A stretch of 64,000 bases of DNA from Actinomycetota bacterium (lineage in GTDB: Bacteria > Actinomycetota > Thermoleophilia > Solirubrobacterales > 70-9): positions 1 to 64,000 of the forward strand of contig JAFDWB010000070.1 in assembly GCA_018268675.1 (NCBI GenBank), written 5' to 3'. The notes beneath the pieces are model-generated. The model was not told where the DNA came from. It did no database searches and saw nothing but the letters and a program-made list of their open reading frames with translations. This document shows, piece after piece, positions 5 through 62,146 of the stretch. Positions within the stretch are counted from its first letter, which is position 1. Each line of letters opens with the position of its first letter. A program made the position numbers and the translations under genes.

Positions 5-100
5 CAGCTGTTCCTTATGCCGACCAGTCCGGCAAAAAGAACAGCTGACCGGGGTCGGCCGGGGAACGGGAGGTCCGTCACCCTTCCTCCCGTCTTCCTC
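5..100 (+). repeat. Composite repeat A, copy 1 (hairpin plus conserved tail)
   Basis: An imperfect hairpin has a left arm at 5-22 (CAGCTGTTCCTTATGCCG) and a right arm at 29-47. A spacer of 29 bases follows, then the conserved motif GTCACCCTTCCTCCCGTC at 77-94, continuing to 100. The same hairpin, spacing and tail recur at 25082-25180 (+) and 61837-61930 (-). The tail also pairs locally with an upstream ACGGGAGG (66-73 with 86-93). No T-run follows the hairpin, so it does not look like a simple intrinsic terminator. The whole 1-508 stretch holds no convincing gene. Confidence 0.75.
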
Positions 101-200: not shown

Positions 201-322
201 GTGTGACGTCCCCGACGTCTTCGTGACGAACCCGTGCCCTCTTCCCCACGCACCCCTCACGTCCCGGGCGCCTCATGGGGGTCACAGCCTGCCAGGACCC
301 CCATGAGGCGCCCGGGACGTGA
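201..322 (+). repeat. Module B copy 1: GTGTGACG flank plus 27-bp-arm hairpin with ACAGCC loop
   Basis: A conserved flank starts GTGTGACGTCCCC (201-213), continues with TCTTCGTGACG (218-228) and has CCCCACG at 244-250. A hairpin follows with perfectly complementary 27-base arms at 257-283 and 296-322 and the 12-base loop ACAGCCTGCCAG (284-295). A reverse-strand copy at 61473-61590 keeps the flank and loop but has different, still fully paired, arms. This supports selection on structure. Function unknown. Confidence 0.75.
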
Positions 323-8211: not shown

Positions 8212-9042
8212 ATGGCCGAGGGCGTCGACCGGATCGTCTACGTCGGCCACGCGACCGTCCTGATCGAGCTCGACGGCGTGCGGCTGCTCACCGACCCGGT
8301 GCTGGGAGGGTGGCTCGGGCCGCTGCGGCGGCAGGGGCCGGCGCCGGGGCCGGAGGTGGTCGAGGGCCTCGACGCGGTGCTGATCTCCCACCTCCACCGC
8401 GACCATGTCGACCTACGCTCGCTGCGTCGCCTGCCGTTCGGGGTGCCGCTGATCGTGCCGGGCGGGACGCGGGCGTTCTTCGAGACCCGGCGACCCGGCG
8501 CCGAGGTGATCGAGCTCGCTCCCGGCGAGGCCCACCGGCTGGGCGGGGTCACGATCACCGCGACCCCGGCCGACCATGCGCTCGGCCGCCGCGGGGTCGA
8601 GGCGATCCCGGTCGGCTTCCTGGTCGAGGGCACCCGGAGCCTCTACTTCGCCGGCGACACTGACCTCTTCGACGGCATGGCGACCCTCGCCGAGGACCTC
8701 GACCTCGCCCTTCTCCCGGTCTGGGGCTGGGGCCCGACCCTCGGCCCCGGCCACCTGAACCCGGAGCGCGCCGCCCGCGCCGCAACCCTCCTCGCGCCCC
8801 GGATCGCCGTCCCGATCCACTGGGGCACCCTCTACCCCGCCGGCCTGGCGCGCCTGCGCCCCCGGCCCCTGAGCGAGCCCCCACGCGAGTTCGCGGCAAG
8901 GGTACGAGCGCTCGCCCCCGGGGTCGACGTGAGGGTTCCGGCGCCGGGCGAGGCAGTGGTGTTGGGGGGTGGGGAAGGGACCGCCGGCTGGCGGCCCCGC
9001 CAGCCGCAGCTTCGACGGCACGGCCATCCCCCTCATGCTTAG
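8212..9042 (+). CDS. Metallo-beta-lactamase-fold hydrolase (UlaG/NAPE-PLD-like)
   Basis: 276-residue cytoplasmic metallo-hydrolase. The metal motif HLHRDH is at residues 60-65; later ligands appear in ATPADHAL, YFAGDTDLF and PIHWGTLYP. The pattern VGHATVLIELDGVRLLTDPVL is typical of the UlaG/N-acyl-PE phospholipase D-like branch. It is 9 bases behind the MFS gene and may be co-transcribed. The last 20 or so residues (rich in Arg, Gln, His, Pro) are encoded by sequence that enters the large hairpin at 9022-9063, so the C-terminus may have been rewritten by insertion of that repeat. Confidence 0.88.
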   Translation: MAEGVDRIVYVGHATVLIELDGVRLLTDPVLGGWLGPLRRQGPAPGPEVVEGLDAVLISHLHRDHVDLRSLRRLPFGVPLIVPGGTRAFFETRRPGAEVIELAPGEAHRLGGVTITATPADHALGRRGVEAIPVGFLVEGTRSLYFAGDTDLFDGMATLAEDLDLALLPVWGWGPTLGPGHLNPERAARAATLLAPRIAVPIHWGTLYPAGLARLRPRPLSEPPREFAARVRALAPGVDVRVPAPGEAVVLGGGEGTAGWRPRQPQLRRHGHPPHA

Positions 9043-9063
9043 GCTGTTATGAGGGGGATGGCC
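9022..9063 (-). repeat. ACAGCC-loop hairpin at the 3' end of the hydrolase gene
   Basis: Perfect 15-base arms GGCCATCCCCCTCAT (9022-9036) and ATGAGGGGGATGGCC (9049-9063) enclose a 12-base loop. On the minus strand the loop reads AACAGCCTAAGC. Nearly the same loop is found at 34873-34884 (AACAGCCGAAGC), again between CCTCAT and ATGAGG. The left arm and loop overlap the last codons and stop of the upstream hydrolase gene. Confidence 0.75.
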
Positions 9064-9130
9064 GCGCCTTGGCCTGCGCCAGGCCGGGCACGTCCCGCTA
9101 CAGCGGTCGACCTAGGTCCGGCCAGGGCGG

Positions 9131-9175
9131 CGCGGTCGTCCTTTGGTCCGGATACCGGACTTAAGGACGACCGCG
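9131..9175. repeat. Long nested hairpin
   Basis: Outer arms CGCGGTCGTCCTT (9131-9143) and AAGGACGACCGCG (9163-9175) are perfect. Nested inside, GTCCGG (9146-9151) pairs with CCGGAC (9155-9160) around ATA, making an almost continuous stem. It lies between the ACAGCC-loop hairpin and the GTTCGCAG module. No T-run follows. Confidence 0.6.
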
Positions 9176-9225
9176 ATCGGGGGGCCGGACGAAAGGGCGA
9201 CCGCGCCCGGCACCGGACCCGGTGC

Positions 9226-9325
9226 GTTCGCAGCTTGCGGCGCATACCGTGGGTTTCTGCGAACTCACCGGGGCTGGCGTCTCCGGTGTTCCTTACTTGC
9301 CATATGCGCAAGAAAGGAACACCGG
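9226..9325 (+). repeat. Module C copy 1: GTTCGCAG/CTGCGAAC stem, CTCACCGG, then variable hairpin
   Basis: GTTCGCAG (9226-9233) pairs with CTGCGAAC (9257-9264), followed by TCACCGG. A second hairpin follows with 18-base arms at 9283-9300 and 9308-9325 (one mismatch) and loop CATATGC. The same order, with TCGCAG/CTGCGA stem, ACTCACCGG and a different downstream hairpin, occurs at 34949-35071. The remainder up to the next start (9326-9443) shows no gene and only the ribosome site near 9432. Confidence 0.65.
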
Positions 9326-9443
9326 AAGGCCGGGGCATTCTGGTCCCGGCGCAGGCCGAGGCGCGCCCCCGTCCCGCCGCGGTTGCGTTCGCCTTGGCAC
9401 CATAGGAAACTTCCGCGAAATCGCTCAGGGGGGAGGAGTGCAG

Positions 9444-24896: not shown

Positions 24897-25081
24897 GCAC
24901 GCGAGCCTACGCGCTTCGGGTGCGGCTGTGAACTGCTTCGGGCGGGGGAAGCTGTCGCCCGAAGCACAAGGGACGGGCCGGGTGTGTCGGGAGAGGGGGA
25001 AGGGTCGCGGGGGAGTCACGGGAGCGCCACGGGTCCGTCACCGAAGTGGCACCTCGCCGTCGTCGGGAGGGCACCATCCGT

Positions 25082-25180
25082 CCAGCTGTTCCTTATGCCG
25101 GTATATCGGCCATAAGGAACAGCTGGACGAGGTCGGGCTGGGGAGAGGGAAGGTTCGTCACCCTTCCTCCCGTCTTCCTC
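25082..25180 (+). repeat. Composite repeat A, copy 2
   Basis: Hairpin arms CCAGCTGTTCCTTATG (25082-25097) and CATAAGGAACAGCTGG (25111-25126) are perfect. The tail GTCACCCTTCCTCCCGTC begins at 25157, the same spacing from the hairpin as in copies 1 and 3. It lies between two divergent genes, so it cannot be a terminator for either. Confidence 0.78.
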
Positions 25181-34791: not shown

Positions 34792-34830
34792 CTCCGACGC
34801 TTGTCCTTGTATGGAGGACAAGCGTCGGAG
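34792..34830. repeat. 15-bp-arm hairpin after the PadR-linked gene
   Basis: Perfect arms CTCCGACGCTTGTCC (34792-34806) and GGACAAGCGTCGGAG (34816-34830) with loop TTGTATGGA. It follows the stop codon by 10 bases and could help terminate transcription, but there is no T-run. It is the first of four large hairpins in the gene-free stretch 34783-35243. Confidence 0.6.
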
Positions 34831-34852: not shown

Positions 34853-34904
34853 GGCGCGCCCGTCCCCCTCATGCTTCGGCTGTTATGAGGTGGACGGGCG
34901 CGCC
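34853..34904 (-). repeat. ACAGCC-loop hairpin with 20-base arms
   Basis: Arms 34853-34872 and 34885-34904 pair over 20 bases with one mismatch. The minus-strand loop is AACAGCCGAAGC, differing by one base from the loop at 9037-9048. The arms next to the loop (CCTCAT/ATGAGG) are shared with that copy, but the outer arms differ and stay paired. The 3' flank GCGCCTCGGCCTG matches GCGCCTTGGCCTG after the 9022-9063 copy. Confidence 0.72.
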
Positions 34905-34948: not shown

Positions 34949-35071
34949 TCGCAGAAACCCGCGGATCACGCGGGGAACTGCGAACTCACCGGATCCTCAC
35001 GCCGCCCCCGAGCGCCCGCCACGTTGATGGGCCGAAAACCTGCCTATATGTCAAGTTTTCGGCCCATCAAC
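34949..35071 (+). repeat. Module C copy 2: TCGCAG/CTGCGA stem, ACTCACCGG, then variable hairpin
   Basis: TCGCAG (34949-34954) pairs with CTGCGA (34978-34983), with an inner CCCGCG/CGCGGG stem, followed by ACTCACCGG (34984-34992). Downstream, GTTGATGGGCCGAAAAC (35023-35039) pairs perfectly with GTTTTCGGCCCATCAAC (35055-35071). The order matches 9226-9325, but the second hairpin is unrelated in sequence. Confidence 0.65.
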
Positions 35072-35174: not shown

Positions 35175-35227
35175 GGCGCGGCCATCCCCCTCATAGCCCG
35201 CCGAAGGATGAGGGGGATGGCCGCGCC
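35175..35227 (+). repeat. 20-bp-arm hairpin of the ACAGCC-loop family
   Basis: Perfect 20-base arms at 35175-35194 and 35208-35227; the inner 15 bases equal those of the 9022-9063 hairpin. The 13-base loop AGCCCGCCGAAGG shares GCCGAAG with the 34873-34884 loop. It ends 16 bases before the stop of the minus-strand gene at 35244, so it lies at the 3' end of that operon. Confidence 0.68.
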
Positions 35228-61406: not shown

Positions 61407-61472
61407 CCGGCGGTTCCACTCGGAAGCGACGTGGGGCCGAGGTGTCCGGGCCGGGGCGCCCGTCCGAGGTGC

Positions 61473-61590
61473 GTCCTGGGCGTCTCGTGGCGGCCCGGGC
61501 AGGCTGTGGCCGCCACGAGACGCCCAGGACGTAAGGGTTCCGTGGGGAAGCGGACTCGATCCGTGACGAAGATTCCGGGCACGTCACACT
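61473..61590 (-). repeat. Module B copy 2: GTGTGACG flank plus 24-bp-arm hairpin with ACAGCC loop
   Basis: Perfect 24-base arms at 61473-61496 and 61509-61532 enclose a loop that reads ACAGCCTGCCCG on the minus strand, one base different from the loop at 284-295. Over the 24 comparable arm bases the two hairpins differ at five positions, all compensated on the other arm. The flank on the same strand reads GTGTGACGTG (61581-61590), TCTTCGTCACG and CCCCACG, in the same order as at 201-250. Confidence 0.78.
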
Positions 61591-61627
61591 CCCTCCCTCG
61601 GCCGCCTGCCGGCCCGCACCACGATCC

Positions 61628-61733
61628 CCACCGCTGAAGCATTTTGGTGATCATGGGGCCAAGATGCTTCAGCGGTGGCCCCCAGGCGTGGGGATGCCTG
61701 GGGTCGTTGACGAAGACGTTGGGAACGTCACAC
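61628..61733 (-). repeat. Module B copy 3: GTGTGACG flank plus unrelated hairpin
   Basis: The minus strand carries GTGTGACGTTCCC and TCTTCGTCAACG (within 61705-61733), then CCCCACG and a CCCCAGG/CCTGGGG stem. Next comes a hairpin with 20-base arms at 61628-61647 and 61659-61678 (one mismatch). The hairpin sequence and loop differ from those of copies 1 and 2, although the flank is conserved. Confidence 0.65.
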
Positions 61734-61836
61734 GCTCTCGCGCCCTGGGACTCGGGATCGAGAGCCTGGGACGCGCTGCGGACTTTCACCCTGTCCTGGC
61801 AGGGTCACGGTCGGTCACGTGATTCAGACCTCTGAA

Positions 61837-61930
61837 GAAGACGGGAGGAAGGGTGACGGGCCTCTCCTTTCTCCGGCCGATCCCCATCAGCTGTTCCTTA
61901 TGGCGCCCATACCGCCATAAGGAACAGCTG
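61837..61930 (-). repeat. Composite repeat A, copy 3
   Basis: On the minus strand a perfect 18-base-arm hairpin (61913-61930 with 61888-61905, loop of 7) is followed after 30 bases by GTCACCCTTCCTCCCGTC and CTTC (61837-61857). Hairpin, spacing and tail agree with the copies at 5-100 and 25082-25180. The whole 61407-62211 stretch holds only repeats and, at its end, the alkB control region. Confidence 0.78.
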
Positions 61931-62033
61931 GACGGAGGGCTCCCTTCTGGCGACGACGAGCTCTCACTTCGGTGACGGACCCCTGCGGCTCCGGTCACTT
62001 CGCCGCGACCCGTTCTCCTATCCCCGCACCCAC

Positions 62034-62083
62034 GGCCGTCTCGGCCACGGCCACAGCCCGCCAGGGTCGTGTCCGAGACGGCC
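62034..62083 (+). repeat. ACAGCC-loop hairpin upstream of alkB
   Basis: Arms 62034-62052 and 62065-62083 pair over 19 bases with two mismatches, enclosing ACAGCCCGCCAG, one base different from the loop at 284-295. The arms are unlike those of the other copies apart from a short GTCTCG-like stretch. It lies 64 bases before the alkB operator. Confidence 0.7.
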
Positions 62084-62146
62084 GGGTCCCTTGGGCTTCG
62101 GGCCAGCCGGCACACGGCGTCAAGCTTGGCATCGGTGTAACCGGTA

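What the first reader, a model, noticed from the sequence alone, without database searches (positions are those of the whole stretch)
61473..62083. Family of large intergenic hairpins with a conserved 12-base loop and compensated arms
Hairpins at 257-322, 61473-61532 (minus) and 62034-62083 have loops ACAGCCTGCCAG, ACAGCCTGCCCG and ACAGCCCGCCAG. Those at 9022-9063 and 34853-34904 (both minus) have AACAGCCTAAGC and AACAGCCGAAGC, and 35175-35227 has a related 13-base loop. Arms are 15-27 bases and nearly perfect, yet differ between copies. Copies 257-322 and 61473-61532 differ at five arm positions, all with matching changes on the other arm. A constant loop on variable but paired arms suggests a folded RNA or single-stranded DNA recognised at its loop. 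No element of this kind is known to me.
Basis: seen in the sequence. Interest (0 to 1): 0.85.

Follow-up and report, generated by a model that had tools for sequence, protein, structure and literature searches.

The report
REPIN-like paired-hairpin mobile repeats
These hairpins are the two ends of a repeated, gene-free DNA element that has spread to dozens of gene-end positions in one group of uncultured actinobacteria; it looks and behaves like the known REP/REPIN repeats but has far longer stems, a fixed 12-base loop, and none of the enzyme that normally moves such repeats.

Summary
All six hairpins exist, and the five compensated differences between 257-322 and 61473-61532 check out. They form two families. 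The ACAGCCYGCCMG hairpins are the two ends (A and B, loops facing outward) of a ~300-650 bp mosaic intergenic element. The genome has 145 such hairpins; five congeners have at least 138 each, and the other 226 genomes of the order searched have none. The AAC(C)AGCCGAAGC hairpins are a second family, 48 copies, in this genome only. Covariation is strong: 14 of 21 pairs change on both sides, score 0.37 against at most 0.09 in slid controls. Elements are present or absent at orthologous gene junctions, sit at gene 3' ends, and differ by species. This fits a REPIN/BIME-like mobile repeat read as a folded single strand, not a stand-alone RNA. RAYT (Y1) transposases are absent from the genus, and the REP tags GTAG/CGTC are lacking. 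Within a genome the whole hairpin is conserved, not just the loop; across species arms change and the loop stays. A sister in-gene hairpin family has arms changing in concert (54 double against 2 single changes), suggesting template-switch copying keeps arms matched. Verdict: new variant of a known kind.

The parts
61470..61533 (-). A hairpin, left end of a complete A/B element; 26-bp arms, loop ACAGCCTGCCCG
   Evidence: model and alignment
61628..61678 (.). inner palindrome CCACCGCTGAAGCATTTTGG (family F), part of the mosaic body
   Evidence: other copies
61888..61930 (.). inner palindrome CAGCTGTTCCTTATGGCG (family C), part of the mosaic body
   Evidence: many other copies
62033..62084 (+). 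B hairpin, right end of the same element; 20-bp arms, loop ACAGCCCGCCAG
   Evidence: R1 match (G000:C67:62033-62084)
61470..62084 (.). complete A/B element, intergenic between ORFs ending 61406(+) and starting 62212(+)
257..322 (+). A hairpin, 27-bp perfect arms, loop ACAGCCTGCCAG; end of an A/B element cut by the contig start
   Evidence: 88% match of 3-360 to the element body at G000:C16
5..47 (.). C-family palindrome in the truncated element at the contig start
115..160 (.). D-family palindrome (CGCTGCAGCG...) in the truncated element at the contig start
34853..34904 (-). S-family hairpin, loop AACAGCCGAAGC, left end of an S element
35023..35071 (.). inner palindrome GTTGATGGGCCGAAAAC (family H) inside the S element
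35175..35227 (+). S-family hairpin, loop AGCCCGCCGAAGG, right end of the S element; the element fills the gap between convergent ORFs 34782(+) and 35244(-)
9017..9068 (-). S-family hairpin, loop AACAGCCTAAGC, followed by palindromes 9131-9175, 9213-9277, 9282-9326; site empty in congener G009

Best explanation
The hairpins are the paired, inverted terminal units of non-coding, non-autonomous repeats that work like REPINs/BIMEs. Shown: two homologous hairpins (A and B) with outward-facing ACAGCCYGCCMG loops enclose a mosaic of other palindromes. The element exists in dozens of copies at gene 3' ends and is gained and lost at orthologous junctions. Each genome has its own arm variants, and stems are kept paired. 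Inferred: spread in trans by an enzyme that recognises each end as a folded single strand on its ACAGCC strand, reading the loop plus the genome-specific inner stem. Also inferred: arms stay matched partly because hairpin-templated copying (template switching) transfers a change from one arm to the other, so arms can change while pairing and loop persist. Any effect on 3'-end transcripts would be a by-product.
For: Paired architecture: 48 pairs with loops outward and 1 the other way within 3.5 kb, mostly 200-700 bp apart; aligned elements. Mobility or turnover: G000_C82 95403-95930 holds an element where G006 has 12 bp between convergent genes; 281291-281825 against 92 bp; 91235-91340 empty where G006 has 1424 bp with an element; 294577 empty (153 bp) against 728 bp. 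At L079, G000 is filled and G009 has about 27 bp. Placement: 19 of 35 A/B hairpins between convergent genes and 3 of 35 between divergent ones, against 23% and 24% of intergenic bases. Structure: 14 of 21 stem pairs change on both sides, 96.5% of cells paired, score 0.373 against at most 0.091 in slid controls, 0 of 500 shuffles. The whole hairpin is conserved against divergent flanks. Loop conservation survives a loop-blind search. Strand: G-T outnumbers A-C in the ACAGCC orientation, 47 to 14 (28 to 11 distinct contexts). REP enzymes are known to bind single-stranded hairpins strand-specifically, some reading the loop (PMC8266576). Concerted arms: in the related T family, 54 double against 2 single-sided changes at seven orthologous sites; template switching is known to do this (PMC8794818, abstract listed).
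Against: No mobilising enzyme found: Y1 transposase is absent from all 12 genus genomes; IS110 and reverse transcriptase do not track the element. No GTAG/CGTC tag beside the stems. No clean target-site duplication. Stems (20-27 bp) and loop (12 nt) are longer than typical for REPs (PMC3733652). The G-T excess is partly one inherited column of B, and it is absent in the T family (8 to 9). Genomes are fragmented MAGs, so a single enzyme gene could be missed in some, though less likely in all six carriers.
Confidence: 0.6

Rival explanations
1. A structured RNA at mRNA 3' ends (stabiliser, processing or bidirectional termination signal), kept by selection on RNA pairing, with the loop as a protein or RNA contact.
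For: Placement 3' of genes, convergent enrichment; strong pairing and covariation; G-T excess in the ACAGCC orientation of A/B.
Against: Transcripts entering from either flanking gene meet the first hairpin in the CUGG..., not the ACAGCC, orientation, because the loops face outward. Stems are followed by no U-run. At one site an ordinary terminator-like hairpin already stands near the stop codon in both species, before the element (G000 L005 and G003 L209). Most compared sites are empty in a sister species, so the host genes do without it. The loop-sharing T family sits inside coding genes.
Confidence: 0.2
2. Neutral relics: palindromes whose arms are kept matched only by replication template switching, with loop conservation reflecting recent common ancestry rather than recognition.
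For: T-family arms change in concert with almost no one-sided intermediates (54 against 2); many palindrome families of this genome without a shared loop also have perfect arms; within a genome the loop is no more conserved than the arms; template switching creates and maintains hairpins (PMC8794818).
Against: Does not explain about 70 dispersed copies with constant paired architecture and outward loops, nor the same loop across species whose arms differ at many positions. Template switching can also invert a loop, yet loop orientation is constant.
Confidence: 0.12
3. A classical MITE of a DDE transposon, the hairpins being subterminal structure and the flanking GGGCGCTTGCGGCYG-like stretches the terminal inverted repeats.
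For: Left and reversed right flanks share a motif; size and intergenic placement fit MITEs.
Against: No sharp ends and no target-site duplication at four filled/empty comparisons; flanks diverge while hairpins are conserved; no longer copy with a transposase among 48 pairs, the single 2-kb pair being an IS110 inserted into an inner palindrome.
Confidence: 0.08

Closest known systems
REPIN / BIME (paired REP sequences with RAYT / TnpA-REP)
   Same: Inverted pairs of homologous hairpins, mosaics with other palindromes, high copy, 3' of genes, genome-specific variants, presence/absence at orthologous sites, complementary stem variants.
   Different: Stems 20-27 bp instead of roughly 5-13, loop 12 nt and conserved across species, spacing 200-700 bp, no GTAG tag, no Y1/RAYT gene in the genus.
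CGTC-tagged REPs (PMC3733652)
   Same: Palindromic repeats, mostly inverted dimers, no dedicated transposase known.
   Different: CGTC REPs have 8-9 bp stems, 4-5 nt loops and an unpaired CGTC tag; here the tag is absent. The A stem happens to begin with CGTC, but it is paired.
Rickettsia palindromic elements (for the T family seen in passing)
   Same: Palindromes inserted in frame inside unrelated conserved genes.
   Different: Shorter (about 70 bp), shared 13-nt loop, arms changing in concert between orthologues, actinobacterial host.
IS200/IS605-derived elements
   Same: Ends would be recognised as folded single strands.
   Different: Ends are inverted relative to each other; no TnpA/Y1 found.

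Membership tests
REP / REPIN | high-copy extragenic palindromic hairpins located mainly 3' of genes | tested here: met
REP / REPIN | inverted pairing of two REP units | tested here: met
   48 outward pairs against 1
REP / REPIN | unpaired GTAG (or CGTC) tag beside the stem | tested here: not met
   GTAG in 1 of 70 and CGTC in 2 of 70 units next to the stem
REP / REPIN | 20-40 bp units with short stems and loops | tested here: not met
   52-66 nt units, 20-27 bp arms, 12-nt loop
REP / REPIN | RAYT (Y1, PF01797) gene in the genome | tested here: not met
   0 of 12 genus genomes; control genomes ring
REP / REPIN | mobility: dimorphic insertion at orthologous sites | tested here: met
Intrinsic terminator | stem followed by a U-run on the gene's transcript | tested here: not met
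   outer flanks GACCTCGG.. or CGTCCCTT..
Known structured RNA (Rfam 15) | covariance-model match above the gathering score | tested here: not met
   no gathering hit in the window; only sub-threshold eukaryotic miRNA-type hits in related loci
MITE (DDE) | precise terminal inverted repeats with target-site duplication | tested here: not met
   no duplication at compared filled/empty sites
Rickettsia palindromic element (T family only) | in-frame insertion of a palindrome in conserved genes | tested here: met
   cysS, lhr, CofH-type, MMPL and PrmA genes

The most novel reading that the evidence does not exclude
A hairpin-recognising mobilisation system unrelated to Y1/RAYT transposases spreads elements by reading a fixed 12-13-nt loop (shared core ACAGC across three families in the genus). 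Template switching lets the arms drift in concert, so each species has different arms under the same loop.
Probability: 0.22. Interest if true: 0.78.

Novelty: new variant of a known kind. Interest (0 to 1): 0.52.

Why it matters
If correct, REPIN-like repeats evolved or survive without a RAYT in a deep actinobacterial lineage, so either another enzyme family moves them or they persist by recombination alone. The long stems with a fixed loop make both recognition and arm co-evolution directly testable. The in-gene sister family shows perfect covariation arising with almost no one-sided intermediates. That warns that covariation alone does not prove a functional RNA.

Tried and rejected
Kissing of the two terminal loops: on one strand they are reverse complements, but the variable loop positions 7 and 11 are not coupled between ends, so strict kissing was rejected. 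RAYT: PF01797 absent. IS110 and RT as mobilisers: present only in genomes that do not match the distribution. Intrinsic terminator: no U-run, outward loops, and T relatives inside genes. Rfam: nothing. First impression that the loop is the only conserved part: corrected by oriented, loop-blind diversity. The G-T/A-C counts for S and C palindromes are symmetric by construction and were discarded. Alignment A1 and the T set were collected by loop sequence, so their loop invariance is partly circular; (A/B) and two flank-identified T orthologues are the unbiased checks. A tblastx run timed out. A family-wide search of the cysS site failed and used the last search. Literature for the exact element: nothing found.

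Full report
Check of the observation. A loop-blind scan of the window finds all six hairpins at the stated places. The five compensated differences between 257-322 and 61473-61532 are real, as the arms show. Eight random windows with the same dinucleotide composition gave no hairpin of score 30 or more, against 15 in the window. The six belong to two families: A/B with loop ACAGCCYGCCMG (257, 61470, 62033), and S with loop AAC(C)AGCCGAAGC or similar inside CCTCAT/ATGAGG arms (9017, 34853, 35175).

What the unit is. ACAGCCYGCC occurs 120 times in the genome against 29 for the reversed control, mostly as minus-then-plus pairs, many exactly 412 bp apart, and often at contig ends. Fetching and aligning the pairs shows one element. 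Hairpin A (about CGTCCCGGGCGCCTCATGGGGGTC-loop) and hairpin B (about CGGCCGTCTCGGCCACGGCC-loop) lie in inverted orientation around a mosaic body of other palindromes. In the window the complete element is 61470-62084; the contig start cuts another one at 1-322. Of the pairs seen within 3.5 kb, 48 have loops outward and 1 the reverse. S hairpins pair in the same way (window 34853/35175).

Distribution. In 232 genomes of the order only those six carry it. Public records with the B hairpin are MAGs named Solirubrobacterales or Actinomycetota. The S family has 48 copies here and at most 2 noise-level matches in any congener.

Conservation. In 71 distinct A/B hairpins, 14 of 21 pairs show changes on both sides, 96.5% of cells pair, and the covariation score is 0.373 against at most 0.091 when partners are slid and in 0 of 500 shuffles. 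That alignment was collected by loop. A search that ignores the loop still returns the same loop almost without exception for A, and for nearly all true B hairpins. Within one genome, however, the whole hairpin is conserved: pairwise difference in G000 is 0.03-0.13 in arms and loop alike, against 0.25-0.56 in the 30 bases on either side. Between species the arms change (GGGGGTC, GGCGCTC, GGAGGCGGCC, TAGGCGGTC and others) while the loop stays.

Turnover. Orthologous junctions differ. Two filled sites in G000 match gaps of 12 and 92 bp in G006, and two sites empty in G000 are filled in G006. One G000 site has about 27 bp in G009. At one site shared with a close relative (flanks 89-94% identical) the B hairpin is nearly the same, the A hairpin differs by several compensated pairs, and the bodies do not align, which points to mosaic replacement. 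In L005 the A hairpin is reduced to its stem base (CGTCC-T-GGGACG), as expected from palindrome deletion. No clean target-site duplication was seen.

Context. A/B hairpins lie between convergent genes in 19 of 35 cases and between divergent genes in 3 of 35, against 23% and 24% of intergenic bases (elements). The gene calls come from a home-made codon-position caller, so these are approximate.

Mechanism. The anatomy matches REPIN/BIME repeats, which are inverted REP pairs, 3' of genes, genome-specific and mobile (PMC3116915, PMC3733652). TnpA-REP enzymes bind single-stranded REP hairpins on one strand only, and in some systems the loop base is essential (PMC8266576). In A/B stems, G-T pairs outnumber A-C mismatches in the ACAGCC orientation (47 to 14; 28 to 11 distinct contexts), which suggests that this strand is the folded one at each end; one inherited column contributes much of it. 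I infer recognition of each end as a folded single strand. The enzyme is unknown: no Y1 transposase in 12 congeners, and no match of IS110 or RT to the distribution. REP tags are absent. So it works like a REPIN, but it fails defining tests of that family (tag, unit size, RAYT) and is not filed as a member.

A relevant sister family. Congeners, including those without A/B elements, carry hairpins with loop AACAGCGGGGAGG and highly variable arms. Many are in frame inside genes: cysS, lhr, a CofH-type radical SAM gene, MMPL, prmA. Several are at the same position in different species and even another genus. At seven such sites, 54 stem positions changed on both sides and stayed paired, while 2 changed on one side. 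Slow RNA compensation should leave many one-sided G-T steps; simultaneous change is what template switching produces (PMC8794818). Loops of the two orthologues found without using the loop differ at 2 and 4 of 13 positions while arms differ more. This cautions against reading covariation as proof of a functional RNA, here too.

Conclusion. Most likely a new, untagged, long-stem variant of REPIN/BIME-type mobile repeats in a Solirubrobacterales genus, with an unidentified mobiliser.

Noticed in passing
L203, L211, L222, L228, L207, L200, L208, L225, L204, L201, L223 (hairpin near position 1500 of each locus); 14 copies in the window's genome, none in the window: T family: hairpins with loop AACAGCGGGGAGG and highly variable paired arms, often in frame inside conserved genes and orthologous across species and two genera, with arms changed in concert (54 double against 2 single changes).
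   Followed up: partly
window 5-47, 115-160, 9131-9175, 9282-9326, 25079-25129, 34792-34830, 35023-35071, 61628-61678, 61888-61930: A zoo of at least eight other near-perfect palindrome families with conserved outer arms and variable centres (CAGCTGTTCCTTATG, GTTGATGGGCCGAAAAC, CGGTGTTCCTTACTTGC, GGTGAGTTCGCAG and others), shared with congeners and used as cassettes inside A/B and S elements.
   Followed up: partly
L230 733-2215 (G008:C182): An IS110-family transposase gene lies inside a C-family palindrome (CTCCGCTGTTCCT / TATG...AGGAACAGCGGAG) that is itself inside an A/B element.
   Followed up: partly
starts of contigs C25, C42, C55, C59, C60, C63, C65, C74, C78, C80, C84, C86 of G000 and of the window's contig C67: Many contigs of this MAG begin inside A/B elements, so the repeats break the assembly.
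   Followed up: no
L005 about 1180-1225 (G000:C11): An A hairpin reduced to its stem base (CGTCC T GGGACG) while the neighbouring element sequence persists, as expected from palindrome excision.
   Followed up: no
G009 contigs, e.g. L184 1663-1713, L186 1464-1516, L197 3207-3267: Further long hairpins in an A/B-free congener whose loops share another motif (TACCTGC/TACTTGC), a possible fourth loop family.
   Followed up: no
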